Assembly: GCF_000723165.1 (NCBI RefSeq)
Contig: NZ_HG322949.1
Location: 2,135,639-2,199,638, forward strand
Direction of reading: 5' to 3'
From: Janthinobacterium agaricidamnosum NBRC 102515 = DSM 9628
Lineage (GTDB): Bacteria > Pseudomonadota > Gammaproteobacteria > Burkholderiales > Burkholderiaceae_D
Length of the DNA: 64,000 nucleotides
In this document: positions 44,446 through 62,256 of the stretch, piece after piece
Numbering within the stretch: position 1 is the first letter of the stretch
Layout of the letters: each line of letters starts with the position of its first letter
Notes under the pieces: generated by a model
Told to the model about the DNA's origin: nothing
Seen by the model: only the letters and a program-made list of their open reading frames with translations
Databases searched by the model: none
Position numbers and translations under genes: made by a program

Positions 44446-44459
44446 AGGCGCGGCAGTCC

Positions 44460-45368: not shown

Positions 45369-45482
45369 TCATGATCCTGAGTCATTTTGTATGTGACACT
45401 GATGATATCGCATTATGAGTCACAGCGCTTGATAATGACTTCCATCGCAGCGCAGGCTGTTCATTTATTAAAGGGAGTCATC
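45369..45482. promoter_or_regulatory. Divergent regulatory region with repeated TGAGTCA
   Basis: Between the LysR and NAD(P)-binding starts, TGAGTCA occurs twice in direct orientation (around 45379 and 45415). These may be binding sites for the adjacent LysR regulator; the assignment rests on position and repetition only. Confidence 0.3.
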
Positions 45483-46349
45483 ATGTTTGTTGTTGCCGGA
45501 ATTACAGGACAAGTCGGCGGTTTTGTCGCGCAAACCTTGCTCGACGCCGGCTTGCCGGTGCGCGCCGTGGTGCGCGACGCGGCCAAGGGTAAAGTATGGC
45601 AAGCACGCGGTTGCCAGGTGGTCATCGCCGATGTCGGCGACGAGGCGGCGCTGACCAGGGCCTTCAGCGGCGCCGACGCGGTGTTCATCATGCTGCCATC
45701 CAACTTTGCTCCGGCCGAAGGTTTTCCGGAAGTGCGTACCATCGCGGCGACCCTGTCTGGCGCGTTGAAAGCGGCCAATCCGGGCAAGGTGGTGTGCCTG
45801 TCGACGGTCGGCGCGCAAGCGACCCAGCCGAACTTGCTGAACCAGCTGCAGATCGCCGAACAAGTGCTGGGCGCCTTGCCGATGCCGGTGGCGTTCGTGC
45901 GCGCCGCCTGGTTCATGGAAAATTCCGCCTGGGATATCGAGCCCGCCAGGCTGGCCGGCTTGATCCCCAGCTATTTGCAACCGCTGGACAAGCCGGTGCC
46001 GATGGTGTCGGTGGCCGATGTCGGCCGGGTCGGCGCGCAAGTGTTGCAGCAGGAGTGGCGCGGCGTCAAGGTGGTCGAGCTGGAAGGGCCGCGGCGTTAT
46101 ACGCCGAACGATATCGCTACTGCGTTTTCCCGCATCCTCGGCAAATATGTCAGCATGTTCGCAGTGCCGAAGAATACCTGGGCCGAAGTGTTCATCGAGC
46201 AAGGCAGCACCCGCCCGGAACCGCGCATCCAGATGCTGAACGGTTTTAACGAAGGCTGGATCGAGTTCGAAGGCGGGCAGGGCGCTTCGCTGAAAGGCAC
46301 GGTCACGCTGGAACAGGCGCTGGCCCGGCTGGTGGCCAACGCCGGCTAG
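45483..46349 (+). CDS. NmrA family NAD(P)-binding protein
   Basis: A 288-residue atypical SDR. It starts MFVVAGITGQVGGFVA, with the GxxGxxG-type loop, and contains FVRAAWFMENSAWDI and a C-terminal WAEVFIEQGS region as in NmrA/QOR2-type proteins. Members bind NAD(P) and act as quinone reductases or redox sensors. The ATG at 45483 has AAAGGGAG upstream and begins the Rossmann strand; the longer frame from 45387 is rejected. It is divergent from a LysR gene that probably controls it. Confidence 0.87.
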   Translation: MFVVAGITGQVGGFVAQTLLDAGLPVRAVVRDAAKGKVWQARGCQVVIADVGDEAALTRAFSGADAVFIMLPSNFAPAEGFPEVRTIAATLSGALKAANPGKVVCLSTVGAQATQPNLLNQLQIAEQVLGALPMPVAFVRAAWFMENSAWDIEPARLAGLIPSYLQPLDKPVPMVSVADVGRVGAQVLQQEWRGVKVVELEGPRRYTPNDIATAFSRILGKYVSMFAVPKNTWAEVFIEQGSTRPEPRIQMLNGFNEGWIEFEGGQGASLKGTVTLEQALARLVANAG

Positions 46350-46363
46350 GCATAATGCGGTGC

Positions 46364-47395
46364 TCAGTTGTTTCGTTGCACCCTGACCACCAGCCAGCCG
46401 GCCACCACCGTGAAAGTGATGATCACGCCGACGATGATCCAGAAACCGTGCGGGTGCTGGGCCAGCGGGATGCCGCCGACATTCATGCCCAGCATGCCGG
46501 CGATGATGTTGATCGGCAACGCCAGCACGGTGACGATGGTCAGCACGAACAGGCTGCGGTTGTTTTCTTCGTTGACGCGGGCGGCAATTTCTTCTTGCAG
46601 TAACTTGATGCGTTCCTGCAGAGAAGACATGTCGCTCAGCACTACCGAGAATTCCTCGGTGGATTGGCGCAATTCCTGGGTGTCCAGTTCGGCCATCCAC
46701 TGCGGCGGCCGTTGCAGCAGGCGGAACAGTGCCGCCGGTTCCGGCGCCAGCAGCCGTTGCAGCCGCACCAGCACGCGCCGCAAGGTGCCCAGGTCTTCGC
46801 GCTTGTGCACCAGCCGTCCGGCCAGCAGCTTGTCTTCGATATCGTCGACCCTGGCCACCGCATCGCGCACGATATTGACCAGCACGTCGGCCTGGTCGCG
46901 CAGCAAATGGATCAGCAATTCGACCGACGAGCGGATCGGGTCGTGATGCTTGATGATGGCCTGGCGCAGCCGCTCGATCGATTGCAATGGCGAGCGGCGC
47001 GCGCTGATGACGATGTTTTGCGCGACGCTGAGCCACAAGGTCGAAATGTCGGACGCTTCAAACGAAAAATTGTGCAGCACATCGTTGACCACCGCGATCA
47101 GCGTGTTTTCGGCCAGTTCGATGCGGGTCGAGCGCGAGCCCTGGTGCAGCGTTTCATAAAATTCATCGGCCAGGCTGACGTGGCTGCGCAGCCATTTTTC
47201 GCTGGCGGCGTGCGACAGGTTGAAGTGCAGCCAGATGAATTCCCGGCCGTCGCCGCGTCCGGCGTTTTCCAGCAGCCAGGCGCGCGCGCCGTTGGAATCG
47301 AGTGCGACCGGCTGCGCTTCGCGGCCGAATAAAAATCCCCATACCAGTCCGGATGTGTCCGATCCATAGGTAAAGCCGGCTGTTTCCATTGTCAT
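46364..47395 (-). CDS. CorA-family metal transporter, ZntB-like
   Basis: A 343-residue protein with a large cytoplasmic N-terminal domain and two C-terminal membrane helices. The signature GMN appears in AGMLGMNVGGIPLAQ at the end of the first helix. The N-terminal WLHFNLSHAASEKWL and the NVGGIP loop point to the ZntB branch (zinc) rather than classic CorA (Mg). Start placed at the ATG at 47395; a second ATG two codons later and a TTG upstream are possible. Confidence 0.87.
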   Translation of the reverse strand: MTMETAGFTYGSDTSGLVWGFLFGREAQPVALDSNGARAWLLENAGRGDGREFIWLHFNLSHAASEKWLRSHVSLADEFYETLHQGSRSTRIELAENTLIAVVNDVLHNFSFEASDISTLWLSVAQNIVISARRSPLQSIERLRQAIIKHHDPIRSSVELLIHLLRDQADVLVNIVRDAVARVDDIEDKLLAGRLVHKREDLGTLRRVLVRLQRLLAPEPAALFRLLQRPPQWMAELDTQELRQSTEEFSVVLSDMSSLQERIKLLQEEIAARVNEENNRSLFVLTIVTVLALPINIIAGMLGMNVGGIPLAQHPHGFWIIVGVIITFTVVAGWLVVRVQRNN

Positions 47396-47592
47396 CCCAG
47401 AAGCGGTCAAGTGGTCGTCAAGAAGCGTGCCGGGATTGTATTACAAATTATTGCGGATCAACGTGGCCGGGCGGCTTTTATGTTGCAAAGCAGCAGAGCC
47501 CGATTTGCGCAACATAGTATTGCAACCAGCGTACTGCAAACAGTTCTACACTTGCTCTATAGTAAGCTAATCGCGCAACCATGGAGATCCAG

Positions 47593-48567
47593 ATGAGCAC
47601 CACCCATACCCAAAGCGTCCTCAGCTATAGCGACGTGCAGCAGGCCGCCGAACGCATCAAGGGCGTGGCCCGCCGCACGCCGGTGTTGACGTCCAGCACC
47701 GCCAATGCGATCGCCGGCGCCGAATTGTTTTTCAAGTGCGAAAACCTGCAGCGCGTCGGCGCTTTCAAGTTTCGCGGCGCCTACAACGCGCTGGTCCGTT
47801 TTTCGCCCGAGCAGCGGCGTAACGGCGTGCTGGCTTTTTCGTCAGGCAACCACGCGCAAGGCGTCGCGCTGGCGGCCCGTTTGCTCGGCATCCCTGCCGT
47901 GATCGTCATGCCGGAAGACGCACCGGCCCTGAAAGTGACCGCCACCAAGGGCTATGGCGCCGAAGTGGTGACATATGACCGCTATACCGAAGACCGCGAG
48001 GCAATCGGCCGGCGCCTGGCCCAGGAACGCAATATGACCTTGATACCGCCATACGACCATCCGGACGTGATTTGCGGGCAGGGCACGGCGGCGCTGGAAT
48101 TGTTCGAGGAAGTCGGCCAGCTCGACGTGCTGCTGGTATGCCTGGGCGGCGGCGGTTTGCTGTCCGGCTCGGCGCTCGCGGCCAGCGGCATGAGCCCCGA
48201 TTGCCAGGTGATCGGCGTCGAACCGGAATTGGGCAATGACGGGCAGCAATCGTTGCGCAAGGGCGAAGTGGTGCACATCGCGGTGCCGGATACGATTGCC
48301 GATGGCGCCAAGACCACCCATATCGGCGACCATAACTTTGCCGTGATCCAGCGCCACGTGGACGATATCATCACGGTCAGCGACGCCCAGCTGGTGGCAA
48401 CCATGAAGTTTTTCGCCGAACGGATGAAGATCGTCGTCGAGCCGACCGGCTGCCTGGCCGCGGCCGCCGCGCTGCAGCAAGTGTATCCGGTGCAGGGCAA
48501 GCGGGTCGGCGTGATCATCAGCGGCGGCAACGTCGATCTGGCGTCGTTTGCCCGGTTTATCGCCTGA
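47593..48567 (+). CDS. Threo-3-hydroxyaspartate ammonia-lyase / threonine-serine dehydratase family
   Basis: A 324-residue fold-type II PLP enzyme without a C-terminal ACT domain. The Schiff-base Lys is Lys59 in FKFRGAYNA, the Gly-rich phosphate loop is LGGGGLLSGSA near residue 185, and SGGN near the C-terminus binds PLP. The size and lack of a regulatory domain suggest a catabolic threonine/serine dehydratase, serine racemase or hydroxyaspartate dehydratase; motifs do not decide between them. The start has GGAG 6 bp upstream. A RidA gene follows 45 bp downstream, which fits an enzyme releasing enamine intermediates. Confidence 0.88.
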   Translation: MSTTHTQSVLSYSDVQQAAERIKGVARRTPVLTSSTANAIAGAELFFKCENLQRVGAFKFRGAYNALVRFSPEQRRNGVLAFSSGNHAQGVALAARLLGIPAVIVMPEDAPALKVTATKGYGAEVVTYDRYTEDREAIGRRLAQERNMTLIPPYDHPDVICGQGTAALELFEEVGQLDVLLVCLGGGGLLSGSALAASGMSPDCQVIGVEPELGNDGQQSLRKGEVVHIAVPDTIADGAKTTHIGDHNFAVIQRHVDDIITVSDAQLVATMKFFAERMKIVVEPTGCLAAAAALQQVYPVQGKRVGVIISGGNVDLASFARFIA

Positions 48568-49980: not shown

Positions 49981-50178
49981 GATCATTCCTTTCAGTGAGC
50001 GGGTTGGTATGTGGCTACTGTAGCCATCTGCCTCGCCAGCTTCCAGGGGATTGCGACAGGGCGCATTTTTGGCGGGATGGCCTGCAAAAAAACGGCGCCG
50101 GAATGACAGTGGCCGCAGCCGTTTTTCGGGCTCCCCCGGCATGGCCGCAACGTGGGTTTATCGGCCGATGAGGGAGTC

Positions 50179-53100
50179 ATGCGCTTGATCCGTACTGCTT
50201 TGCATAACCTGGCCAGGTACCGGCGCGCCTGGCGCCGGTTCGGCAATTTGCGCGCCGGCGCGCCACGTATTGCGCGCGCGCCCGTGGGTTTACATTTTCC
50301 CGCCACGCCGATGTCCTGGCTGGCCGCCGCGGCGCTCGCCGGCGGCGTGGCCGGTGCAGTACTGATCGCCGGCCACGCGCGCCACCTGGAAGCCGCCGCC
50401 GCGACCTTGCCCGGCGATGCGCGCGCCGCGATCGTCTACCAGCCGGTGCTGCCCGGCGCCACTTTCGACGTGCCGGAGCGGCCGGGCCTGAGCCTGGACC
50501 TCCGGCAGGGCGGCGCTTTGCTGGTCGCGTCCGGCATGCGCTTTCAACAAGCCGTGCGGGTCGACCTGTGCAGCCAGTTGCTCGATCCGGCCAGGCCGCG
50601 CCTGTCGCCGCTGCGCCTCGGTTACCGTTACGACGACGTGCAGCGCTGGGTGGCCCGCAGCCAGGCGTCATCGGCGCCGCTGGCCTTGCGCAATGTGCTG
50701 CTGGTGGCTGGCGAGCGCCAGGCGGCTATGCCGGAAATACAGATCGGCGGCATGGCGCTGGCCGACTTCAGCCAGCCGCTGCAACTGGATTGGCGCAGCA
50801 CGCAAGGCAATGCGCGCTGGGTCAGCGATGCCAGCCTGGGCCAGATCGTCGATGCGCCGCGCGCGCAAGTGGCGCTGCGCCAGCAAGGCTGGCTGCTGTG
50901 GGGCGATGCATCCCGTCAGTCAGCGCTGCGGATCACGCGGCGCGGCAGCGCGGCCTGTCCGCAAGCGGGCGAATTGCTGCTGCAAATGGTGCATGCGCCG
51001 CAAGATAATGAGGCCGTAAAACCGGCCAGGGCGCTGGTGCAGGCGTTTCCGGCGCAAGGCCAGCCGGTCGCCGGTTACCTGGCGGCCGGTTCTTACCAGG
51101 TGCCGGCCGCGCCGCGCAACAGCCTCGAAGACCAGGCCCTGTTCAACGATTTGCAGGCGCATGGCTTGCTGCGCTGGTCGGCCGGCGGCGGCATCGACCT
51201 GGTGCCGCGCGACCTGGCGCTGTGGCGCGCGGCGCCGGCGGCGGCGCGCGCGGCCGACCTGGGCGTATGGGATGGCGTACCGCTCGACCAGGCGACCTTG
51301 AAATTGATCAAGCGCCTGTACCAGCAGGCGGACGGCGCGTATGTGCGCCAGCAGATCGATATTTTTAATGACGAACTGCGCCTGCTGGCCTGGCGGTTCA
51401 AATCCGGTTCTACGGCGCCATGGTCGGCCAGCCGCCATGGCGCGCTGGCGACGCCGATACCGGCCATGCCGGTGGCCGCGTCGCGCCTGTTCGCCGACTT
51501 GCCGCAGGGCTGGGCGCCGTGGCAGCGGGTGGCCGGCTGGCCGCAGGGGAAATTGCGGCTGGCGCTGGCCGAGCCGGCCGGCGGCGCCGAACAATTCGAG
51601 CTGATGCTGATCGGCCGTCCGCTGGCGGTCAGCGGGGCGCGCCTGCACGCCATGCCGGCCTGCGGCGGGCGCGCCTGTCCGGCGCCCGATAGCGCGCAAA
51701 TCCTGACCTTGACGGCGCTGCCGGGGGCGCGCGCCATCGAGCTCGATATCGCAGCGCTCGATGCCAGCACGCTGCGCGGCCAGAAAGACCAGTCATACCG
51801 CCACTTGCGGGTGGCGGGCGGCAAGCTGGCCTGGCAAGCGCTGGATAATAACGGCGCGCCGAACGCCCGGCCGCGCGCGCCGTCGCCGGTCTTGCTGCAA
51901 GACCGGACCGGGACGCTGCTGTGGGCCGACGGCTTGCCGACCCGTGCCGCGTCCGACGCCGGACTGGGGCCGCTGCTGGGACTGGGCAGCGATCACGGCA
52001 ACAGCGTGGCCGGCATGCTGGGCCGTTTGCCGCTGCCGTCGACCGGCCGGCTGAGCCTCGACTTGCCGCTGCAGACGCTGAGCCAGCGGGTGCTCGATTG
52101 CATCGGCCTGCGCCGCGGCCGCTGGGATGGCAAGCAATGCAGCGGAGGCCAGGGCGTGCCGGACGGACGCCGCGCCGGGCTGGTGTTCCTCGACGCCGAG
52201 AACGGCGACATCCTGGCGGCGGCCGGCGCCGGCGGCGCCCCGGTCAGCGCCGCCAACTGGCGCGAAGTGCGCGATTTCGACCAGGCCAACCCGGCCCGCA
52301 GCCCGTTGCGCCTGCCGGCCTTGCAGCACGATGGCGGCGCCCATCAAAGTCCCGGCTCGACCTTTAAAATCATCAGCGCGCTGGGACTGGAAACGGCGGC
52401 CAGAACCGATAGCCGCATCGATGCGCTGCTGGGCGGCCTGCCGCTGGCGGCGATCAACGGCATGGCGCGCCAGCGCGGTTTCGGCTTCCAGACCGATGCG
52501 GCGACGTATCCTTATATGCCGGCCAATGGCAAGCTGGCCCACATCACCAATTACCGCGAACAAAGCCTGGACCGGCGCGCCCAGGACGGCCGGCTGGGGC
52601 TGGCCCAGGCGCTGACGTACAGCTTGAACACCTGGTTCGCCTGGACCGCCGAATTGAGCGACCGCAGCCTGTTCGGCCGGCCCGACGGCGGCGCGCCGGA
52701 CTTGCAGGCGCTCGACCCGGAAGCGCTGGACGCATTGCGGCCGATCGCCGCCGCCGCCCACACGCTCGGGTTTGAACAGCCTGTGCGGCTCGACGGCGGC
52801 TTGCTGCCGGCCGATTTCGCGTGGGCCGGCTGGGATGCATTGCAGGCCACGCCGTCGCATATCGACACCATCCACACGCGCCACGAATTGCGCCAGATGG
52901 CGATCGGCTTGCGCATGCAAACCACGCCGCTGCAAATGGCGCTGGCCTCGGCCGCGATCGGCCAGGGCAGGATCGTCGCGCCGCGCCTGCTGCTGGCGCT
53001 CGACGGCCGCGACAGCAAAGTGCCCGAGCCGCGGCCGCTGGACGTGCGGCTGGACCGCATCCGGGCCGGCATGAAGGGCGTGGTCGAAACCGGCACCGGC

Positions 53101-53391
53101 GCCGGCGCGTTCGGCGGCGCGCTGCTGGCGCCATTGCGCCGTGGGCTGTACGGCAAGACCGGCACCGCGCCGAGCAGCGTCACGCTGCCGGACGGCGCCA
53201 AGCGCGAGGTCAACACGGTCTGGTTCACCGGCTGGCTGGAGCCGGGCAGCATGCCGGGCCAGGCGCACCGGATCGCGGTGGCGGCCTTTGTCAGCCACTC
53301 CGACGGCAGCGGGGGGCAACATGCGGCGCCGGTGGTGGCCGCCGTATTGTCCAGCTTGTTGACTCAGAGTAATGAAAAGAGGGGGAAATAG
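50179..53391 (+). CDS. Membrane-anchored protein with penicillin-binding (D,D-transpeptidase) domain
   Basis: A 1070-residue protein. One membrane helix is at about residues 45-65 (WLAAAALAGGVAGAVLIAG), then a ~640-residue region of no recognised family, then a C-terminal transpeptidase domain with all three active-site motifs: S727-TF-K730 in PGSTFKI, S815-L-N817, and K993-TG in YGKTGTAP. Such domains cross-link peptidoglycan or bind beta-lactams. The N-terminal region lacks glycosyltransferase motifs and is not a typical class A or B PBP. The start is an ATG at 50179 with GAGG upstream; an in-frame GTG at 50152 is less likely. It heads a seven-gene cluster and may process or sense the cell wall for it. 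Confidence 0.85.
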   Translation: MRLIRTALHNLARYRRAWRRFGNLRAGAPRIARAPVGLHFPATPMSWLAAAALAGGVAGAVLIAGHARHLEAAAATLPGDARAAIVYQPVLPGATFDVPERPGLSLDLRQGGALLVASGMRFQQAVRVDLCSQLLDPARPRLSPLRLGYRYDDVQRWVARSQASSAPLALRNVLLVAGERQAAMPEIQIGGMALADFSQPLQLDWRSTQGNARWVSDASLGQIVDAPRAQVALRQQGWLLWGDASRQSALRITRRGSAACPQAGELLLQMVHAPQDNEAVKPARALVQAFPAQGQPVAGYLAAGSYQVPAAPRNSLEDQALFNDLQAHGLLRWSAGGGIDLVPRDLALWRAAPAAARAADLGVWDGVPLDQATLKLIKRLYQQADGAYVRQQIDIFNDELRLLAWRFKSGSTAPWSASRHGALATPIPAMPVAASRLFADLPQGWAPWQRVAGWPQGKLRLALAEPAGGAEQFELMLIGRPLAVSGARLHAMPACGGRACPAPDSAQILTLTALPGARAIELDIAALDASTLRGQKDQSYRHLRVAGGKLAWQALDNNGAPNARPRAPSPVLLQDRTGTLLWADGLPTRAASDAGLGPLLGLGSDHGNSVAGMLGRLPLPSTGRLSLDLPLQTLSQRVLDCIGLRRGRWDGKQCSGGQGVPDGRRAGLVFLDAENGDILAAAGAGGAPVSAANWREVRDFDQANPARSPLRLPALQHDGGAHQSPGSTFKIISALGLETAARTDSRIDALLGGLPLAAINGMARQRGFGFQTDAATYPYMPANGKLAHITNYREQSLDRRAQDGRLGLAQALTYSLNTWFAWTAELSDRSLFGRPDGGAPDLQALDPEALDALRPIAAAAHTLGFEQPVRLDGGLLPADFAWAGWDALQATPSHIDTIHTRHELRQMAIGLRMQTTPLQMALASAAIGQGRIVAPRLLLALDGRDSKVPEPRPLDVRLDRIRAGMKGVVETGTGAGAFGGALLAPLRRGLYGKTGTAPSSVTLPDGAKREVNTVWFTGWLEPGSMPGQAHRIAVAAFVSHSDGSGGQHAAPVVAAVLSSLLTQSNEKRGK

Positions 53392-53468
53392 GCCGGTAAC
53401 CCGCGCTATGAATCTGCTGCCGATATGGCATGATTCCGAGATCATTGTATCGTCAGGAATAACATCGT

Positions 53469-54752
53469 ATGCGCTTGCCAGGAACCCGGTATCAAGAACA
53501 TGGCTGGGAACAGGTGCGCAAGCTGCTGGGAGCCTGCTCGCTGCAGGTCTTACGCAGCCGGGATGGCGGCCTGGCGCTGGATCAGGCAGGAGGGGATGGC
53601 ACATTGGATGGCGGATTGGACTGGTACATCGATGCGGTGTGCGCCGCCTTGCGCGGCAGCGCCGGCCGCGGCCGCTCCGAGGCGCCCGGCAACAGCTATG
53701 GCGAAAGCGTGGCCGAACTGGCGCTGGCGCTGGTCTGCGAATTGCGGGCCCAGCCGTCGTACTGGGACGCTTTTGTGACCGCGCTGGGGCGCGACGACGC
53801 GCTGGCCGGCGGCACCGAAGGCATCATCCGCAAAAAGGTCAACGACATGTTTTCAAGCTTGCGCGACAAGGTCGACGCCGACAATTACCAGGCCACGTTG
53901 GGCCGCGCCTGCTCGCCGAACAAGATGTACACCTATCGCATGCTCGACACGGCCTACCATGAAATCGCGGCGCTGTTCGCCGGCTGGCGCCAGCATCAAT
54001 CCCAGGTGGCGGCGATCCTGGGACGCGCACTGGACGGGATTCCGATCGAAGTGCGGCAAATGAAGTCGATTTCCGGCTGCAAGGCCGAATGGCTGATACG
54101 CTGGAGCGCCACGCTGGAACGGTACGGCGGCGCGCCGGGGCCGCTGCACACGCGCTCCAAGCGTTTCGCCAGCCTGAAGAACAGCCCGGATAAAATCGCC
54201 GCGATGATGGCCGAAATCGGCGCTTATGAAGAATTGTCGGCCAACCTGGACAGCGCCGAAGACTGGGCCGGCGACGCCGGCGAAGCGGGGCTGTGGCTGG
54301 AAGACTATTGGCGCGTGATGCATGCGCCGGAAGCGGACGCCGGGCAGTCGGACCAGGTCCTGGCGGCCGCCGACGATGAGTTTGACGGCGCCGCCGACGC
54401 CGACGGCGAAGCGGCGGCGCCGGACGCGCTGTCGGCGGAAGAAACCGCGCGCGATGAAGCGGCGGCCGGCGGCGTTTCGCTGCCCCTCCGCTATATCGCA
54501 TTGGCCGGCGCGGCGCAGCAGCAGGGCAGTTGGGCGCTGCGCATATTGAAGGAAGAAACGCTGGCGATCCGGCTGGCGGTCTATCATACGCTGCTCGGCA
54601 GCGTGGACGACAGCTACCCGGACGAGTGGCGCGACCCGGCCACCGGGGAATTGCCGACCTTGCAACAATTGGCGGGACTGGACGGCATTTCGATGCCGAC
54701 CTTGCGCAAACGGCGCAACCAGGCGATTGCCCGCTTGCGCGCCGCGACATGA
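53469..54752 (+). CDS. Unknown protein with C-terminal helix-turn-helix
   Basis: A 427-residue soluble protein. The final ~35 residues (PTLQQLAGLDGISMPTLRKRRNQAIARLRAA) read as a helix-turn-helix like sigma-factor region 4 or a LuxR-type motif. Residues 310-345 are an acidic Ala/Asp/Glu-rich linker. The N-terminal half is alpha-helical with no recognised family. It sits 77 bp after the PBP-like gene and 11 bp before the next gene, and may regulate the cluster. DNA binding is inferred, not shown. Confidence 0.72.
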   Translation: MRLPGTRYQEHGWEQVRKLLGACSLQVLRSRDGGLALDQAGGDGTLDGGLDWYIDAVCAALRGSAGRGRSEAPGNSYGESVAELALALVCELRAQPSYWDAFVTALGRDDALAGGTEGIIRKKVNDMFSSLRDKVDADNYQATLGRACSPNKMYTYRMLDTAYHEIAALFAGWRQHQSQVAAILGRALDGIPIEVRQMKSISGCKAEWLIRWSATLERYGGAPGPLHTRSKRFASLKNSPDKIAAMMAEIGAYEELSANLDSAEDWAGDAGEAGLWLEDYWRVMHAPEADAGQSDQVLAAADDEFDGAADADGEAAAPDALSAEETARDEAAAGGVSLPLRYIALAGAAQQQGSWALRILKEETLAIRLAVYHTLLGSVDDSYPDEWRDPATGELPTLQQLAGLDGISMPTLRKRRNQAIARLRAAT

Positions 54753-54763
54753 AGGAGAACGAT

Positions 54764-55327
54764 GTGAACCGAGCACTGGACGACAAGTTGCGCGAGCGCC
54801 TGCTGCTGGCCCGCGCCGCCGCCGGCGACCGGCTGATGCTGGCCGATGGCACCATGCTGGCGGCATTGGACGGCAGCCGCGTGCTGACGCCGGCCGAACG
54901 CGCAGTGCTGGCCGCGTCGCCGCTGACGTTGCGCCGCTTCCGGGCCCTGTCGCTGCAAAGACGCCAGGCGGCCCGGCCGCCTGCATGGAGCGGCAGCCAG
55001 GGCTGGCTGCGCGCCGCCGCCGGCGCCGCGCCGCTGGTCGAACTGGTCAGCGACGACGCATGCTGGCGTTTGCATTTCTTGGCGCGCGGCGATCAGCCGG
55101 GCCACGGCTGGTCGCTGGTCTTGAAGCTGGCCGCCGGCGCGCCGTTCGCGTCCGACCTGATGCGTGCAGCGCCGCTGTTGCGGGTGCTCGACGGCGCCGG
55201 CGCCGTGCTGTTGCAGGGCCGCCTAGACAGCGACGGCGAGTGCGAACAGGACTGGCCTTGTCCGCTGGCGCCGGCGCCGCATCTGCAACTGCACGGCGCG
55301 CGGTTCAGCGTCATGCCGGCGGCCTGA
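54764..55327 (+). CDS. Unknown protein of the SPFH-kinase cluster
   Basis: A 187-residue protein without a recognised family. The start is a GTG at 54764, preceded by AAGGAG at ideal spacing, which is better than an in-frame ATG at 54749 that overlaps the previous stop. The first 50 residues are helical and Arg-rich (DDKLRERLLLARAAAGDRL). The C-terminal part alternates in a beta pattern (LLRVLDGAGAVLLQGRL). Its stop is one base before the next start, so it is translated with the cluster. Confidence 0.75.
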   Translation: MNRALDDKLRERLLLARAAAGDRLMLADGTMLAALDGSRVLTPAERAVLAASPLTLRRFRALSLQRRQAARPPAWSGSQGWLRAAAGAAPLVELVSDDACWRLHFLARGDQPGHGWSLVLKLAAGAPFASDLMRAAPLLRVLDGAGAVLLQGRLDSDGECEQDWPCPLAPAPHLQLHGARFSVMPAA

Positions 55328-55328
55328 C

Positions 55329-56435
55329 ATGGACTTGTTCAAATGGCCGGCGCGCCGCCGCGGCAAGCTGAATGCCGGCGCCGGCGCGGCGCTGGGAAGC
55401 AGCCTGGTCGCGCTGCGCCTGGAACCCGGCGATCCGGCGCCGGCCGGCAGCCTGGTCGTCATTTTCGATGACGGCGGCCGCGCGCGCCGCAGCGCCGCGG
55501 CCCGCATCAGGCGCGGCGCCGATGACACCGTCTATTGCTACCATCCCGGCCCGTACTGCATCGACCTGACGCCATTCGCGGCGGCGCCGGAAACCGGCTT
55601 GCGCCTGCATTTTGCGATCGATGCGTCCGACCCGCGCGTCACGCAGCAGCGTTTCGACCTGTATCTGTACTGCGAAGCGGCGCGGCAACTGGCTTTGCCT
55701 GACTTCGGCGCGGCGCTGCAGGCGGCGCTGCAACTGGAACTGGCGCAGGGCAACCTGGAACTGCCGCCGTGTACCTCGCTCGATGAATGGCATGCCTTCC
55801 GCGCCGGCCTGAACCAGCTGTTCTATACCCGCTTCGGCATTACCGTCGACGATTGCCTGCCGGTCGACCTGGGCCAGCAAGTCGATTTTACGCGCTTGCT
55901 GGCATTGCGGGTCCAGGCCGCCGCCGCGCCGGCGCCGGCGCTTGCGCCTTTGGCGGGCTTGTCGCCAGCCGTCGCTGCGGCTGCCGTCCAGCCCGAACCG
56001 GGCGACGCCAGGTCGCTGCGCCGGCTGTTCCTGGAATTGCCGGCCGCCTGCTGCACCTTGCGCCAGGTGCCGCTGCCGGTCGGCCAGGAACTGTTCCAGG
56101 CGCAGCGCCGGCTATTGCAGCGGCTCGACCTGATTTATGCCGGCATCGGCAGCATGCCGTCGCTGGCCTGGGCCGCGCCCGACCAGCCGCTGGATGCGCG
56201 CCAGCGGGCGCGCCGCAGCCATGAAAGCGCGGCCGCGGTGCGCGCGCTGGATGAAGCCTGGGCCTTGCTGGCGCGTTTCCAGCTGGCCGCGATCGCCCAA
56301 TTGCCGGGCTTGTTCGACGATGCCGACCGCATCCTGTCGAACCTGGAACACCACCTGGCGCAACGGCGCCTGGCGTTCGCGCCTTTGGAAACTGAACTTG
56401 ACGATGAGCGCGATGAACGCCGGGAGCCGAGATGA
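55329..56435 (+). CDS. Divergent SPFH-like protein of the kinase cluster
   Basis: A 368-residue protein. Residues ~25-200 follow an SPFH/band-7-like order: beta-rich N-terminal strands (SLVVIFDDGGRA, TVYCYHPGPYCIDLTPF, QQRFDLYLYCEA), then a helix (DFGAALQAALQLELAQ), then FYTRFGITVDDCLPVDL, which parallels QFGLAVSQVDTLRLR in the SPFH protein of the same cluster. The C-terminal half is helical. The relationship to SPFH is inferred from this layout and not from a family match. It starts with an ATG one base after the previous stop and overlaps the next gene by 4 bp (ATGA), so coupling is likely. Confidence 0.6.
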   Translation: MDLFKWPARRRGKLNAGAGAALGSSLVALRLEPGDPAPAGSLVVIFDDGGRARRSAAARIRRGADDTVYCYHPGPYCIDLTPFAAAPETGLRLHFAIDASDPRVTQQRFDLYLYCEAARQLALPDFGAALQAALQLELAQGNLELPPCTSLDEWHAFRAGLNQLFYTRFGITVDDCLPVDLGQQVDFTRLLALRVQAAAAPAPALAPLAGLSPAVAAAAVQPEPGDARSLRRLFLELPAACCTLRQVPLPVGQELFQAQRRLLQRLDLIYAGIGSMPSLAWAAPDQPLDARQRARRSHESAAAVRALDEAWALLARFQLAAIAQLPGLFDDADRILSNLEHHLAQRRLAFAPLETELDDERDERREPR

Positions 56436-57517
56436 GCAAGCTGAACATTACCTTGCCGTCCAGCGCGCAATGCCGCTGCCTGTTGCCGGACGGCCGGCTG
56501 CTGACCGTCACGGCCACCCGTCGCCCGCGCGCCGGCCGGGCCGACGTCAAGTGCGTGGCGGCCGGCGCGCCGGCCTTGTGCGAGCGGATGCAGGAAGTGG
56601 TGCGGCTGGCGCGCCATACCGAGTCGCGTTTCGATAGCCGCGACCAGGTCGTGCTGAGTGTCGATGCGCTGCCGCGCGACGATCAGCGCGACTGGGAACT
56701 GGCGGCCGTGCTGGCCGACCGCATGGTGCGCGGCGAATACCGGGCGGCCCGGCCGCTGGTGTATGCACAAGGCTGGTCGGACGCCTGGCACCTGGGGCAA
56801 GTCAGCGGCGCGCCGGATGCGGCAAGCACGGCGTTGCGCGCGCGGCTGTCGCAGGACGGCGTTTTTTTTGCGGTGCTGGGCGGCGACAGCGGGCCGGCGC
56901 CGGCCGGCGATTATCTGTGCCTGTCGCACCTGGGCGGCTTGAGCGGCCATGCCGATCCGTCGGCCGGCGTATCCAGCGCGCGCGCCTGGTTCCCGCTGCA
57001 TAGCGGCGGTGTCAACGACAGCCTCGGCTGGGTCGAAGTCAGCGTCCATCCGCTAGAGGCGGCCGCGGCCGACGAAGAGGACACCATCGCCGTGCCGGGA
57101 CTGGATGCCAGCGGCCAGCTGGCGGTGCGTCAGGCGCTGGCCGGCGCGCGCCATTTCGACGGACGCGGACTGGGCCGCTGGCGCAGCGTGGTGCGTTTCG
57201 GACCAGGCCGCTTCCAGGGCAATTCCTACGAACTGGCGCTGGTGATGGCCGACCGGCTGGCGCGTGGCCGCGATTTCGTGCCGCGCGGCCGGCTGATCGC
57301 CAGCGGCTGTTCCAGCGCCTGGCATGCGGGCCGGGTCGACAGCGTCGAAGGGCGCGCCCCGAAACGGCAATTGATCTTGAACCAGGCGGTGGCCGGCGAC
57401 CGGGTGCTGCTGCCGAAAGCGTGGCTGGAAGAGGGCGCCGAAGCGGCCGCGTTTGGCGCGGCGTTGAAGGAGAAAGGCGCGTCGGTGGGGTGGATCACGC
57501 ATATCGGACTCATCTAA
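56432..57517 (+). CDS. Lon-protease-like domain protein with internal duplication
   Basis: A 361-residue protein that reads as two related halves. In each, a strand is followed by WELAAVLADRMVRGEY or YELALVMADRLARGRD, then a Gly-rich strand. This order matches the S16 Lon/ComM/RadA-type fold. In the second half Ser265 lies in QGNSYELA and Lys311 in GRAPKRQL, 46 residues apart, close to the 43 between the Lon Ser and Lys. The first half has Asp where Ser265 lies, so it should be inactive. There is no ATPase domain. It overlaps the SPFH-like gene by 4 bp. Proteolytic activity is inference. Confidence 0.58.
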   Translation: MSKLNITLPSSAQCRCLLPDGRLLTVTATRRPRAGRADVKCVAAGAPALCERMQEVVRLARHTESRFDSRDQVVLSVDALPRDDQRDWELAAVLADRMVRGEYRAARPLVYAQGWSDAWHLGQVSGAPDAASTALRARLSQDGVFFAVLGGDSGPAPAGDYLCLSHLGGLSGHADPSAGVSSARAWFPLHSGGVNDSLGWVEVSVHPLEAAAADEEDTIAVPGLDASGQLAVRQALAGARHFDGRGLGRWRSVVRFGPGRFQGNSYELALVMADRLARGRDFVPRGRLIASGCSSAWHAGRVDSVEGRAPKRQLILNQAVAGDRVLLPKAWLEEGAEAAAFGAALKEKGASVGWITHIGLI

Positions 57518-57648
57518 TGCCGGGGATGCGCCGGGGGGGGCGGTGAAAATGCCGTTAGTATGTCTTGCGCGCAATTCTGTTGCGCCCCTGCTAAAATCGG
57601 ATGAAAGACGGCGCGCCCGGACAAAAATATTATCATCAGGAGTGTGAC

Positions 57649-59955
57649 ATGTTCCAAATGTTTGGTTTTGGCGGCGCTAAATGCCCGCGTTGCGAACACA
57701 AGATGGGCGACGCCTCGGGTTATTGCGCCGCCTGCGGCCTGACTTTGGGCGCGCCCCGCAATGAGCCGGTGCTGCGCGATAACCGCTGGATACCCGCCGA
57801 CGACGAGCTGGCGGTGTTTTTCGGCGTGCGCCAGCTGTCGGGCATCTTCACCAAGACCTTGCGCGTGCCGGCCACCACCCGCGCCTACATCCTGCAAACC
57901 GACAAGGTCACCGAAGTGCCGCAGGGCGAATATGAAATCGAGGGATTTTTCACGCGCCTGAACCACTTGCTGCGCAACGGCCATGCCGAAATCCTGATCA
58001 CGCGCACCGGCGCGCTGCCGGTCGAGTTCGATTTCTCCAGCCTGGCCACCAGCGAACACTTGCAAGTGTCGGCCACGTTTACCGTCAGCGTACAGATCGA
58101 CAATGTCAGCGCCTTCGCGCGTTATTTCATGACCACGCCCGGCACCGTGACGAGCGGCCACCTGCACGATTTGCTGGCGCCGTCGGTGCGCCAGATCGCC
58201 GCCGAATTCATCGGCAGCCGGGCGATCCGCGACATGGCGGCCAATAGCGAGCTGCGCCCGCAACTGGATGAACGCCTGCAGGCGGCGCTGAAACAGCGCC
58301 TGGCCCAGTTCGGGCTGGCCGTGTCGCAGGTCGACACGCTGCGCCTGCGCCACGATAAATTCGACGCCAACCGCGAACGCATCGGCACGCTGTGGCTGGT
58401 GGCCGACGAAGGCCAGGTGCAGCTGGAGCACACCAAACAGCTCGACCAGTTGTATGACGAGCGCGAATGGCAAGCCATCTGGCGCGAAGAGCAGAATGCG
58501 CGGCTGGGCTACCGGCGCGCCGAATTGCGCCAGGACGCCGGCATCGACAAGGCCGAACTGGCGCAGCAGGAAGCCGAGCGGGTGCAGGCGATCCGGGCGC
58601 GCCAGGTCGACCTGTACGGCCGCATCCTCGAATCGAAGTCGCGCAAGCAGGCGCTCGACCGCGGCGCCGGCGACACGCTGGCCGCGCTGGAACATGAAAT
58701 GGCGAAACAGGGCGCGCAGCGGGCCGATGAGGCCGCCGAATGGGAGCATGTGCGGGCGCTGGCCGGCATCAAGATGCATACCGAGCTGGAACTGTCGCAG
58801 CAAACCGGGCGCGAACAGATGCAGCTGGCGCAGCAGCGTTTTACGCACCAGGTGCATTTGCAATCGATCAGCCAGCAAATCGAACGCGCGCTGGCGATCG
58901 AGGACGAGGCCAACCGGCGCGCCCAGTTTACCCGGCTGCGCCAGTCGCAAGCGGAGGCGGCGCAGCGCGAAGCGCAAATGGAAGCGGAACACCACCAGGC
59001 GCTGTGGCAAGGCGTCACGCTGGCCAACGCGGCGCGCAAGCGCGAGGCCGAGCGGGTCCAGGAATGGCAAGACCAGCAGCAATTGATGCACCAGCGCGAG
59101 GCGTTGCGGGCCGAAGCCGTCAAGGAGGGCGCGGCGCAGATCCAGTCGGCCGAGGTCAGCGAAAAGATCGCCGGGATGCGCCGCGCCGGCGGCCAGGCCG
59201 AAGCGATCGCCCAGTATGAAAAGCTGTTGCGCACCATCGAGGCGGACGGCATCCAGGCCCGCCAGCTGCAGCAAAACGCGCACCAGGCGCAGCTGGACCA
59301 ACTGGCCATCGACGAACAGCGCCACAAGCTGAAACAGCAAGAGCAGGAAGCGCAGTGGCAGCGCGAATTGCAAGGCATCGCGTCAGCCCGCGAGCAGGAT
59401 TATGCGCGCTGGAAGGGCGAGTACGAGACGCTGGTGGCGCAGCAGGCGCACAGCGCCGAACTGGCGCGCATCGCGATCGAACGCATCGGCGTCATCGGCG
59501 GCTTGAGCGACACCGCCAAGGTGGCGCTGGCCGACGCGCCGAATGCGCAGGCGCTGGTCGAGGTATTGAAGACCCAGGCCCATGCCGGCATGAGCGCGCA
59601 GCAAATCCAGGCGCTGGCGGCGCTGGCCGCGGCCGAGCACAGCATCGCGCCGGCCGACGCGATCCGCATGGCGCATGAACGGGTGCTGGAAGAGCGCGCC
59701 CACATGGAGGCGCAGGCCGACAAGGACCGGCGCCACCAGCTCGATTTGCTGAACCTGCAAAACGACGTCAACAAGCATGCGCTGTCGGCCCAGGCGCAAC
59801 TGGCGGCGGGCGTGGCCCAGGCCGGCGGCGTGCATCACCATCATGGCGCGCCGGCGCCGGCGGCCGTGCAACAGTGCGGCAACGGCCATCCGCTGCGGGC
59901 CGGCCATGAAAACGATCGCTTCTGCGCCGTCTGCGGCGTGCCGCTGCACCCTTGA
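57649..59955 (+). CDS. SPFH domain protein with zinc ribbons and long coiled coil
   Basis: A 768-residue protein. An N-terminal zinc ribbon (C12-x2-C15 and C26-x2-C29) is followed by an SPFH/band-7 domain (about 50-270; HLQVSATFTVSVQIDN, RDMAANSELRPQLDERLQAALKQRLAQFGLAV), a ~400-residue coiled coil (about 280-720) and a C-terminal zinc ribbon (C743 with His, then C759-x2-C762) after an HHHHG stretch. SPFH proteins oligomerise on membranes as scaffolds. No membrane helix is visible, so attachment may be by partners. The ATG at 57649 has AGGAG upstream; 131 bp separate it from the previous gene and may hold a promoter. Confidence 0.85.
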   Translation: MFQMFGFGGAKCPRCEHKMGDASGYCAACGLTLGAPRNEPVLRDNRWIPADDELAVFFGVRQLSGIFTKTLRVPATTRAYILQTDKVTEVPQGEYEIEGFFTRLNHLLRNGHAEILITRTGALPVEFDFSSLATSEHLQVSATFTVSVQIDNVSAFARYFMTTPGTVTSGHLHDLLAPSVRQIAAEFIGSRAIRDMAANSELRPQLDERLQAALKQRLAQFGLAVSQVDTLRLRHDKFDANRERIGTLWLVADEGQVQLEHTKQLDQLYDEREWQAIWREEQNARLGYRRAELRQDAGIDKAELAQQEAERVQAIRARQVDLYGRILESKSRKQALDRGAGDTLAALEHEMAKQGAQRADEAAEWEHVRALAGIKMHTELELSQQTGREQMQLAQQRFTHQVHLQSISQQIERALAIEDEANRRAQFTRLRQSQAEAAQREAQMEAEHHQALWQGVTLANAARKREAERVQEWQDQQQLMHQREALRAEAVKEGAAQIQSAEVSEKIAGMRRAGGQAEAIAQYEKLLRTIEADGIQARQLQQNAHQAQLDQLAIDEQRHKLKQQEQEAQWQRELQGIASAREQDYARWKGEYETLVAQQAHSAELARIAIERIGVIGGLSDTAKVALADAPNAQALVEVLKTQAHAGMSAQQIQALAALAAAEHSIAPADAIRMAHERVLEERAHMEAQADKDRRHQLDLLNLQNDVNKHALSAQAQLAAGVAQAGGVHHHHGAPAPAAVQQCGNGHPLRAGHENDRFCAVCGVPLHP

Positions 59956-59977
59956 AGAAAGCGCCAGACTAGCTTAG

Positions 59978-62256
59978 ATGATGCAAACAGCAAGAGACAA
60001 GATCCGCGAACTGCGCGCCCTGCATGACGATGGGCTGCTCAGCGAGCAGGAATTCGACAGCCGCAAGAACGCCATCCTCGACGCCGAGTACGCGCCGCCG
60101 GGCGGCTCGCCGGTGCCGCCCGCGGCGCAGGTCCCGCCGCGCCAGGGCACCGAGCTGGGCTTCATGGCGGGCCAGGAAATCGGCCCGCAAAACCGCCGCT
60201 ACCGGCTCGAGCGGCTGATCGCGATGGGCGGCATGGGACAGGTGTGGCAAGCGACCGACCTGGCCACCCACGCCGAATTGGGCAGCAGCGAAATGGTGGC
60301 GCTGAAAATCCTGCCGCCGCAGCTGACGTCGAGCGCGACCCACGCCAAGCTGCTGATCGAGGAAGCCACCCAGGCCCGCAAGCTGGCGCATGAAAACATC
60401 GTCCGCGTCTATGAATGGGCGCAGGATCCGGCCACGGCCAGCTATTTCATCATCATGGAATGCCTGGAAGGCGAAGACCTCGACAGCTACCTGTCCAGGC
60501 AAGGGCCGCTGGCCCTGGAAAAGGTGCTGCAATTGCTGCATCCGGTGGCCGATGCGCTGTCGTATGCGTGGGAAAAGCACAAGCTGGTGCACCGCGACAT
60601 CAAGCCCGGCAATGTCTTCCTGACCCGCCACGGCGAAATCAAGCTGCTCGATTACGGCATCGCTTCGCGGGTGCGCAACGCCGGCAGCAGCCTGGGGCTG
60701 CAAACGCCGAACGCCGGCACCGAAGGCTACCGCGCGCCGGAAGCCGGCACCCATCAGCGCCAGCCCAGCCCGAGGCTGGACGTGTACGCGGTGGCGGTGA
60801 TGATTTACCAGATGCTGGAAGGGCGCATGCCGTTCGATGCAAGCCGCGGCGCCGGGCATTTGCCGTCGGCGCCGATGGGCTTGAACGCGGCCCAGTGGCA
60901 AGTGCTGCAAAACGGGTTTTCGATGACGCCGGAATTGCGCCAGCAATCGGTGCAGGCGCTGCTGGAAAGCCTGGAGCGCGCGGCCGGCCCGTCCGAGGCG
61001 GAGCTGGTCGAACAGGCGCGGCTGGCGCGCCAGCAGGAAGAGCACATCCGCAAGGAAGCGGCGCTGGAAGCGGAAAAAACCGCTTGCTGGAACAAAAGCG
61101 CCTGGAAGAACAGGTATTGCGCCGCAAGGCCGAGGTGCAGGCGGCGGCGCTGGAAAAACAGCGCCTGGACAGCGTGCGCAAGGAACAGGAAGCCAGGCGC
61201 CAGCTGGAAGCCGAAGAGGCGCGCAAGCAGCGCAAGGAAACCTTGCGCCAGCAATTGCGCGCGCGGCGCGAAGCCGACGCCGCCAGCGCGCTGCAAGCGC
61301 ACCAGGAATTGCAGCGCAAGGCCTTGCAAGTGAAGGCCGAGGCGGCGTACCGCGCCGAGCAGGAACGGGCGCGCAAGGAGCAGGCCGACCGCGCGGCGGC
61401 CGAAGCGGCGCAGGCCGCCGATGGCGGCCCGGTGGCCGACGCCAACGGCGTGCTGCAAGATCCGTTTATCGACCAGAGCGGCGCCGGACCGGAACTGGTG
61501 CTGATCCCCAGCGGCCGTTTCCAGATGGGTTCGCCGGAAGCCGAACGCAAGATCGCGATGGACGCCGGTTCGCAAAAGACCTGGCTGGACCGCGAAACGC
61601 CGCAGCACTGGGTCGGCATCGAGTATGCGTTTGCGCTGGGCCGGCACCCGGTCAGCGTCGGCCAGTGGCGCGCGTTCGCGCGCGACACCCACTGGGTCTC
61701 GTATTCCGACGTCGACTGGGATCGCCCGGGTTTCGCGCAAACCGACGAGCATCCGGTGGTCGGCATCAGCTGGAACGACGCGCAACTGTACCTGCGCTGG
61801 CTGAGCGGAAAAACCGGCCAGCTGTACCGCTTGCCGAGCGAAGCCGAATGGGAATACGCGTGCCGCGCCGGCACCCGCGGCGCCTTCAGTTTCGGCGACA
61901 CCATCAGCACCGAGCAGGCCAATTACGACGGCAACTACACCTACAACGGCGGCCCGCGCGGCATCTACCGCGACGGCACCACCAAGGCCGGCGAATTCCC
62001 GCCGAATCCGTGGGGGTTGTTCGACATGCACGGCAACGTCTGGGAATGGGTGCAGGACGTGGTGCACGATAACTACGAAGGCGCGCCGGCCGACGGCAGC
62101 GCGTGGGAAGAGGGCGGCGACCCGAGCCGGCGCATGCTGCGCGGCGGTTCCTGGCTGTACAACCCGCGCTACCTGCGCTCGGCGCTGCGCAATGGGTTTT
62201 CTGCCGTGCTGAGCAACGACATTGTCGGTTTCCGCGTGGTACGCAAGCTGGAGTAG
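59978..62256 (+). pseudogene. SHOCT-Ser/Thr kinase-coiled coil-FGE-like protein, split by a -1 frameshift
   Basis: Two overlapping frames encode one modular protein of about 759 residues. The first runs from ATG 59978 to a stop at 61333. Residues ~7-35 are a SHOCT domain (IRELRALHDDGLLSEQEFD), then a Hanks-type kinase (~77-330) with G84-GMGQV, Lys110, H205-R-D207, a DYG at 225 and APE. It is in frame to the A6 tract at 61074-61079. A -1 shift there enters the second frame: coiled coil, then an FGE/SUMF1-type domain to 62256 (LVLIPSGRFQMGSP, LPSEAEWEYACRAGT, GLFDMHGNVWEWVQD, MLRGGSW, GFRVV). The two C-terminal catalytic Cys of true FGE are absent (YLRSALRNGFS). One extra A would restore the frame, so this may be a sequencing error, a fresh mutation or slippage. 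Start at 59978 or 59981. The gene follows the SPFH gene by 22 bp. Confidence 0.82.
61074..61079 (+). other. A6 tract at the kinase/FGE frame junction
   Basis: The zero frame reads GAA AAA ACC across this tract. A Lys tRNA on AAA can slip back one base and continue AAC CGC TTG, entering the coiled-coil/FGE frame. It is not a perfect X-XXY-YYZ heptamer, and no downstream pseudoknot was identified. An A7 tract would give the fused frame directly. Confidence 0.7.

What the first reader, a model, noticed from the sequence alone, without database searches (positions are those of the whole stretch)
50179..62256. Candidate undescribed membrane-associated system: PBP-like, HTH, unknown, SPFH-like, Lon-like, zinc ribbon-SPFH, kinase-FGE
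Seven same-strand genes, four of them abutting or overlapping, combine domains that rarely meet: a transpeptidase with a 640-residue unknown region, an HTH protein, two SPFH-type scaffolds, a Lon-fold protein and a SHOCT kinase-FGE fusion. SPFH proteins build membrane scaffolds, kinases signal, and FGE folds can bind ligands, so a wall/membrane stress sensor or a conflict system is plausible. The cluster also appears GC-richer by eye than its surroundings.
Basis: partly seen in the sequence, partly recalled or inferred. Interest (0 to 1): 0.85.

Follow-up and report, generated by a model that had tools for sequence, protein, structure and literature searches.

The report
Kinase-linked extra cell-wall synthesis cluster
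The seven genes are one half of a larger, apparently undescribed gene system in soil and water bacteria that seems to couple an extra cell-wall-building enzyme pair to protein kinases, a scaffold protein and a protease, although the copy in this strain looks broken.

Summary
The cluster is real. Genes: A transpeptidase, B and C unknown, D SPFH-fold, E Lon-fold, F zinc ribbon-SPFH, G SHOCT-kinase-FGE. Their order is conserved in Massilia, Pseudoduganella and some Janthinobacterium.

It is half of a system. A second operon encodes another kinase, an 850-residue FtsW/RodA-type SEDS protein, an unknown protein, an SH3 membrane protein, a PP2C-like phosphatase and an FHA protein. In 245 family genomes the sets nest: E only with F (54 of 54), SEDS only with E (49 of 49), FHA with F (83 shared; 86 F, 84 FHA). 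Chitinilyticum, in another NCBI order, has most of it beside an integrase and a tRNA, with caspase-FGE proteins.

Best reading: an additional SEDS-PBP wall synthase under Ser/Thr phospho-control with SPFH/Lon partners; all activities are inferred. A conflict system remains possible.

Corrections: G is not one frame in this strain, nor is SEDS; G is one frame in 26 of 28 relatives. The HTH label lacks support. Nine open-library searches found no description.

The parts
50179..53391 (+). A: class-B-PBP-like protein; one TM segment near residues 56-74 (numbered from the alternative GTG at 50152), then a ~640-residue region of unknown fold, then a transpeptidase domain
   Evidence: Pfam PF00905 62 bits; SxxK, SxN and KTG kept in 22 of 22 rows; hydropathy; PDB profile hits to peptidoglycan transpeptidases
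53469..54752 (+). B: conserved protein of unknown function (the HTH label is not supported by HMMs)
   Evidence: 61% mean column identity in 21 rows; no Pfam, NCBIfam or PDB-profile hit for the window protein or profile
54749..55327 (+). C: conserved protein of unknown function, overlaps B by 4 bases
   Evidence: 61% mean column identity in 21 rows; no PDB-profile hit better than E 0.48
55329..56435 (+). D: SPFH-type fold (residues 32-183) followed by a helical bundle; no TM segment predicted
56432..57517 (+). E: Lon/RadA-type domain in residues 181-361, with a similar arrangement in the first half; an invariant Ser (265) and Lys (311)
57649..59955 (+). F: zinc ribbon - SPFH - coiled coil - C-terminal Cys pair (frame is open from 57601; 57649 is the conserved start)
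   Evidence: Pfam Band_7 35.2 bits; 18-row alignment, 63% mean column identity
59978..62256 (+). G: SHOCT - Ser/Thr kinase - charged linker - FGE-like domain, split over two frames here (kinase frame 59978-61333, FGE frame to 62256)
   Evidence: Pfam kinase 137.5 bits, SHOCT 28.8, FGE-sulfatase 192.4 bits; one frame in 26 of 28 relatives
61074..61079 (+). run of six A at or near which the two frames of G change over
   Evidence: sequence; frames

Best explanation
The window holds operon 1 of a two-operon system, an additional peptidoglycan synthase under Ser/Thr phosphorylation control. SHOWN by sequence or model: A has a complete transpeptidase triad. Operon 2 encodes a SEDS (FtsW/RodA-type) protein with a large N-terminal extra region, a second kinase, a PP2C-like phosphatase with its usual motifs, an FHA protein and an SH3-domain membrane protein. 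F has an SPFH domain, D an SPFH-type fold, E a Lon-type fold. INFERRED: A and the SEDS protein form a SEDS-bPBP pair that makes wall at a special place or time, besides the two full-length FtsW/RodA-type proteins that the genome also encodes. The two kinases phosphorylate components, the phosphatase reverses this, and the FHA protein docks onto the phosphothreonines. The FGE-like end of G is a binding (sensor or docking) domain rather than an FGE enzyme. F and D form SPFH assemblies that gather the parts, with E as an associated Lon-fold protease, as SPFH proteins elsewhere pair with FtsH or ClpP-type proteases. The FHA-F-G part also exists alone, so the signalling core is older or more general and the wall module is an add-on. 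In this strain G and SEDS are frame-broken, so its copy may be inactive, unless these are sequence errors.
For: Gene order A-B-C-D-E-F-G. Second operon kin2-SEDS-unknown-SH3-PP2C-FHA in several loci and in the window's own genome. Nested presence in the same 245 genomes: F 86, FHA 84 (83 shared), PP2C 66 (all with F), E 54 (all with F), SEDS 49 (all with E). SEDS follows E even when unlinked: in G027 they lie 844 kb apart on one contig. Within genus g1 SEDS and E are both in the same 2 of 19 F-bearing genomes, and within g64 in the same 13 of 17 (read). Chitinilyticum has A, B, C, D, E, F, kin2, SEDS, the unknown protein, an SH3 protein and PP2C within about 42 kb. Motifs kept: A 22 of 22; the G kinase Lys and HRD in 28 of 28 rows, DFG in 27 and DYG in the window. 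SEDS keeps the Asp of the TDF motif and the SxGG motif when aligned to the genome's own two other FtsW/RodA proteins. PP2C motifs in 3 rows and FHA motifs in 4 rows.
Against: No biochemical or genetic evidence. The distribution nests rather than coincides: 30 genomes with F and FHA lack E and SEDS, and 5 E genomes lack a SEDS hit (G061, G148, G232, G269, G278), so F, G and FHA cannot need the wall module. Co-occurrence counts are not phylogenetically independent. PP2C is not found by this query in 5 of 49 SEDS genomes, and its Pfam score is below cut-off. No FHA homologue and no G-type kinase was seen in Chitinilyticum at E<=1e-3. F and D have no predicted TM segment, which is unusual for an SPFH membrane scaffold. 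HHalign finds no sequence link of E to the genome's own Lon, so the Ser-Lys equivalence is not superposed. G and SEDS are frame-broken in the very genome of the window.
Confidence: 0.58

Rival explanations
1. A conflict or regulated-cell-death system: SPFH scaffolds, kinase and FGE-like domains sense an attack, and the effector (kinase in Oxalobacteraceae, caspase in Chitinilyticum) acts on the cell, with wall synthesis as target or repair arm.
Against: F is near-core in the genus (34 of 37 congeners), whereas defence loci are usually patchy (general knowledge). PADLOC has no model for A, B, D, E, F, SEDS or FHA (C and kin2 not scanned); the hits for G, the caspase and the ATPase are generic. 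Two wall-synthesis enzymes are an odd cargo for a defence system.
Confidence: 0.22
2. Two independent modules that merely sit together: a signalling module (F, G, FHA, PP2C) and a wall module (A-E, kin2, SEDS, unknown, SH3).
For: 30 genomes have F and FHA without E and SEDS; 18 of 20 fetched Janthinobacterium loci have only F-G.
Against: E and SEDS never occur without F in 245 genomes (54 of 54, 49 of 49). E is always near F. A, B-E, F and SEDS recur together across an order boundary.
Confidence: 0.15
3. A relative of the threonine phosphorylation pathway (PpkA-PppA-Fha) that regulates type VI secretion.
For: Kinase + PP2C + FHA is the same trio as in PMC5995506 (passages).
Against: None of the neighbours that I scanned with Pfam matched a T6SS family, while a SEDS and a transpeptidase are there. 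T6SS genes were not searched genome-wide.
Confidence: 0.05

Closest known systems
Actinobacterial pstP-rodA-pbpA-pknA-pknB-fhaA-fhaB locus (PMC6554272, abstract and passages seen)
   Same: SEDS protein, class-B PBP, Ser/Thr kinases, phosphatase and FHA proteins encoded together; linked there to cell-wall synthesis and division
   Different: Gram-negative Betaproteobacteria; no PASTA domain found in G or kin2; added SPFH proteins, Lon-fold protein, FGE-like domain, unknown proteins; SEDS about 850 residues with a large N-terminal region; two operons, often convergent
SPFH-protease pairs (NfeD/ClpP-type, HflKC-FtsH; PMC2636767 passages seen)
   Same: SPFH gene next to a protease-fold gene
   Different: Lon-fold protein without ATPase instead of ClpP/FtsH; N-terminal zinc ribbon; no TM predicted in F or D
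Lon / RadA / ComM Lon-type domains
   Different: No ATPase domain; a second, similar half; no HMM match; Ser-Lys equivalence not superposed
FGS-containing and caspase-containing conflict systems (PMC7159879; passages and section 18 seen)
   Same: FGE-type domains, kinases or caspases, integrase beside the set in Chitinilyticum
   Different: Wall-synthesis enzymes; near-core in the genus; the section on FGS names VMAP-ternary systems of cyanobacteria, not this set
T6SS threonine phosphorylation pathway PpkA/PppA/Fha (PMC5995506, passages)
   Same: kinase, phosphatase, FHA
   Different: no secretion genes among the neighbours scanned; wall synthase instead

Membership tests
Kinase-regulated SEDS-bPBP locus (actinobacterial pstP locus type) | SEDS gene | tested here: met
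   PF01098 65.7 bits in L086, 66 bits in own genome; split over two frames in the own genome
Kinase-regulated SEDS-bPBP locus (actinobacterial pstP locus type) | class-B-like transpeptidase with SxxK, SxN, KTG | tested here: met
   22 of 22 rows
Kinase-regulated SEDS-bPBP locus (actinobacterial pstP locus type) | Ser/Thr kinase with catalytic Lys and HRD | tested here: met
   G in 28 of 28 rows; kin2 by Pfam
Kinase-regulated SEDS-bPBP locus (actinobacterial pstP locus type) | PP2C phosphatase | tested here: inconclusive
   PP2C_2 hit below cut-off (18.4 of 24 bits); DGxGGH, GDSR, TDG and DN motifs kept in 3 rows
Kinase-regulated SEDS-bPBP locus (actinobacterial pstP locus type) | FHA protein | tested here: met
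   PF00498 25.8-51.6 bits; no hit in Chitinilyticum
Kinase-regulated SEDS-bPBP locus (actinobacterial pstP locus type) | PASTA-domain kinase | tested here: not met
   no PASTA hit in G or kin2
Kinase-regulated SEDS-bPBP locus (actinobacterial pstP locus type) | common descent with the actinobacterial genes | not tested
   no tree made; filed as 'works like', not as a member
SPFH superfamily | SPFH/Band 7 domain in F | tested here: met
   Band_7 35.2 bits, cut-off 23.6
SPFH superfamily | SPFH domain in D | tested here: inconclusive
   [not shown]
Lon (S16) protease | Lon-type proteolytic fold | tested here: met
Lon (S16) protease | Ser-Lys dyad | tested here: inconclusive
   S265 and K311 invariant in 31 of 31, but no residue superposition; ungapped by eye, K311 falls two residues from the Lon catalytic Lys (position recalled)
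Lon (S16) protease | fused AAA+ ATPase | tested here: not met
   361 aa, no Pfam family at E<=1
Formylglycine-generating enzyme | paired active-site Cys | tested here: not met
   a single Cys in the whole domain in 19 of 29 Oxalobacteraceae rows, the window among them; 8 rows have two and 2 rows four; position of the active pair recalled, not looked up
T6SS threonine phosphorylation pathway | linked T6SS genes | tested here: inconclusive
   none among neighbours scanned; not searched genome-wide
Known anti-phage defence system | match to a curated defence model | tested here: inconclusive
   PADLOC on ten proteins: only generic kinase, caspase and HerA/FtsK-type hits

The most novel reading that the evidence does not exclude
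A self-contained envelope machine in which a dedicated SEDS-PBP wall synthase, two SPFH scaffolds and a Lon-fold protease are commanded by a Ser/Thr kinase-phosphatase-FHA circuit. The output protein carries an interchangeable FGE-like targeting domain (kinase-FGE in Oxalobacteraceae, caspase-FGE in Chitinilyticum), so the same chassis can either remodel the wall or kill the cell.
Probability: 0.25. Interest if true: 0.88.

Novelty: new variant of a known kind. Interest (0 to 1): 0.72.

Why it matters
Ser/Thr-kinase control of a SEDS-PBP wall synthase is best known from Actinobacteria (the pstP locus, PMC6554272). A conserved counterpart in Gram-negative bacteria, co-inherited in at least one genome without linkage and with SPFH scaffolds and a Lon-fold protein attached, would show that this control logic arose or spread elsewhere. 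It would also give SPFH microdomains a concrete client (a wall synthase) and offer a tractable third SEDS-PBP pair beside the genome's two full-length FtsW/RodA-type proteins. The caspase-FGE version in Chitinilyticum would link wall synthesis to bacterial cell-death modules.

Tried and rejected
Tried without result: HHalign of D against F, of E against the genome's own Lon domain, of the A alignment against the SEDS alignment to see whether their extra regions are related. PDB sequence searches for F alone and by profile for B, C, F. NCBIfam on A-F gave only a below-cut-off PBP2 hit for A. The protein search with the Chitinilyticum A found only 3 proteins and misses the Oxalobacteraceae ones, so its reach is short. 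Foldseek alone for D gave nothing at E<=0.001; only the VIA realignment showed SPFH folds, so D rests on that. A promoter/terminator scan gave numbers near the shuffles and says nothing on operon borders.

Rejected: (1) recent horizontal transfer as the reason for high GC: the cluster is GC-richer than its flanks in 20 of 20 relatives measured. (2) Programmed frameshifting in G: 26 of 28 relatives need no shift; the two exceptions are L033 (a MAG) and L052 (whose other genes are broken too). A sequencing error cannot be told from a mutation here. (3) I first thought that an IS element interrupted the unknown gene of operon 2 in the own genome. It does not: that gene's two matched parts read in one frame.

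Caveats on counts: the 245 genomes are a sample drawn evenly from a larger group. F's 86 include two weak partial hits (G066, G175). Of 32 loci, 22 carry A (L046 and L050 cut by the contig edge, L052 fragmented), one more (L033) a short piece of A at the contig edge; L027 (10 kb held) and L037 (1.5 kb held) lack E upstream of F; in the other seven the contig ends first. Class scan: E in 1 of 229 (own genome). Order scans: F in 3 of 200 and SEDS in 4 of 280. Protein searches list only the best 120 of 969 and of 971.

Papers: PMC6554272, PMC5995506 and PMC2636767 by passages; PMC7159879 by passages and one section; all others only as search listings. That no description is in print rests on the nine library searches that ran (two searches were aimed at analogues), in an open-licence library only.
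Full report
WHAT IS THERE. The window is a stretch of a 5.95-Mb chromosome, by its relatives a Janthinobacterium. Seven same-strand genes fill 50179-62256. A (50179-53391) is a single-TM protein with a transpeptidase domain at its end. B (53469-54752) and C (54749-55327) match no known family. D (55329-56435) and E (56432-57517) have no HMM match either. F (from 57649 to 59955) has an N-terminal zinc-ribbon-like Cys pattern, a Band 7/SPFH domain, a long charged stretch that I read as coiled coil, and a C-terminal Cys pair. G (59978-62256) carries SHOCT, kinase and FGE-like domains. B to E overlap or abut. A pirin-family gene follows.

CORRECTION. G is not one frame here: the kinase frame and the FGE frame are different, and they change over at or near six A at 61074-61079. 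In 26 of 28 relatives with both halves it is one frame. The window's kinase also has DYG where the 27 other rows have DFG. Farther on, the SEDS gene of this genome is likewise split over two frames. Either this strain's copy is decaying or the sequence has errors; intact copies exist in relatives.

CONSERVATION OF THE CLUSTER. Scanning named species genomes with F gave 32 loci, titled Janthinobacterium, Massilia, Pseudoduganella or Herbaspirillum, or MAGs of Oxalobacteraceae, Burkholderiaceae or Pseudomonadota; that scan reaches close relatives only. Where the contig allows, the order is A-B-C-D-E-F-G, with two exceptions (L027, L037) that lack E upstream of F. In the genus, 34 of 37 genomes hold F, and the three without a hit are 82-88% complete; none of 24 genomes of other families in that search does. 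Of 20 such genus loci that I fetched, 2 have A-E and 18 have only F-G.

THE OTHER HALF. Clustering the genes of the 27 loci longer than 12 kb showed that the third most conserved family, after G and F, is an FHA protein on the opposite strand (22 of 27 loci; Pfam). Reading away from the cluster, next come a PP2C-like phosphatase, an SH3-domain membrane protein, a 570-residue unknown protein, an 850-residue SEDS protein (PF01098) and a second Ser/Thr kinase. In the window's own genome the FHA gene lies about 5.8 kb after G and the second kinase ends near 2,216,000. The SEDS protein has a TM segment, about 280 soluble residues and then the membrane bundle (L086). It aligns with the two other FtsW/RodA-type proteins of the genome, keeping the Asp of their TDF motif and the SxGG motif; the catalytic role of that Asp is recalled, not looked up.

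CO-INHERITANCE. The same 245 family genomes, a sample, were searched five times. F: 86; FHA: 84, 83 shared; PP2C: 66, all with F; E: 54, all with F; SEDS: 49, all with E. E is within 3 kb of F in 54 of 54. SEDS is within 31 kb of E in 42 of 49, on another contig in 6, and 844 kb away in 1. Five E genomes have no SEDS hit. Genomes are related, so the Fisher values overstate the case. The within-genus pattern is stronger: in genus g1 E and SEDS are in the same 2 of 19 F-bearing genomes, in g64 in the same 13 of 17 (read). Thirty genomes have F and FHA but neither E nor SEDS: the signalling core stands alone there. In genus g56 the FHA gene lies directly before F in G287, G258, G217 and G187, and in the six g56 loci fetched the gene after F is a kinase with no match to our FGE part.

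OUTSIDE THE FAMILY. In 200 genomes of the order F appears in 3, one outside the family; in 280 genomes SEDS appears in 4, and the one outside the family is the same genome, G401. Its transpeptidase is 100% identical to a Chitinilyticum aquatile protein on a contig of the same length; NCBI places that species in Neisseriales. There, within about 42 kb, lie PP2C, the unknown protein, SEDS, kin2, A (36% identity over nearly the whole length), an SH3 protein, F and B-C-D-E, with two caspase-FGE proteins, three further proteins with FGE-like matches and an FtsK/HerA-like ATPase. A tyrosine integrase and a tRNA-Leu close one end. No FHA or G-type kinase hit was seen.

HOW IT MOST LIKELY WORKS. The set resembles in logic the actinobacterial locus that joins pstP, rodA, pbpA, kinases and FHA proteins and is tied to wall synthesis and division (PMC6554272). 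I therefore think that A and SEDS are an extra wall synthase, that the kinases, phosphatase and FHA protein gate it, and that F and D assemble SPFH scaffolds with E as partner protease, as other SPFH proteins pair with NfeD/ClpP-type or FtsH proteases (PMC2636767). The co-inheritance and motifs are shown; every interaction and activity is inferred. It fails a strict membership test: no PASTA domain was found, and descent was not tested.

RIVALS. A conflict or cell-death system is the main rival, because of the caspase-FGE proteins and the integrase in Chitinilyticum. PADLOC gives only generic hits, and near-core presence in the genus speaks against a classic defence locus. Two independent modules are possible but must explain why E and SEDS never occur without F. 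A T6SS link is unlikely from the neighbours seen.

NOVELTY. New variant of a known kind. Among the listed hits, E homologues are named 'hypothetical' where sources name them, and F homologues 'hypothetical', 'Band 7' or 'SPFH domain-containing', with one called an exonuclease (best 120 shown). The nine library searches that ran found no description.

Noticed in passing
L083:11962-12794 (own genome, about 9.6-10.4 kb after G): Two small ORFs that look like an IS3-type transposase pair (recalled resemblance, no family search) lie between the PP2C and FHA genes; L083:13037-13690 beside them resembles, by eye only, the start of the unknown operon-2 gene.
   Followed up: partly
L083:17148-19395 (own genome): The SEDS gene is split over two frames in this genome, as G is; several relatives have one long frame.
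   Followed up: partly
L110:2564-4717 and L111:9677-13711 (Chitinilyticum aquatile): Two caspase-FGE fusion proteins (717 and 1344 aa), the second directly after F, with three further FGE-like matches in the same stretch; a 644-aa Sel1-repeat protein follows.
   Followed up: partly
L112:8521-10090: Tyrosine integrase with Arm domain beside tRNA-Leu(gag) at the end of the Chitinilyticum set: likely an integrated island.
   Followed up: partly
L074:6316-12062 (unnamed family member, genus g26): Divergent B-C-D-E-F without A or G hits in the 19-kb locus and without a SEDS hit in the genome; an FHA homologue lies about 0.74 Mb away.
   Followed up: no
L075, L077, L078, L081 (genus g56): F plus a kinase aligning with ours from residue 1 or 2 but without our FGE end, with an FHA gene upstream on the same strand: a minimal three-gene form.
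   Followed up: partly
[not shown]
   Followed up: no
window 42139-48564: Upstream neighbours with Pfam matches are ordinary: chemotaxis receptor, RNase H-like protein, NmrA-like protein, CorA transporter, PLP enzyme.
   Followed up: yes
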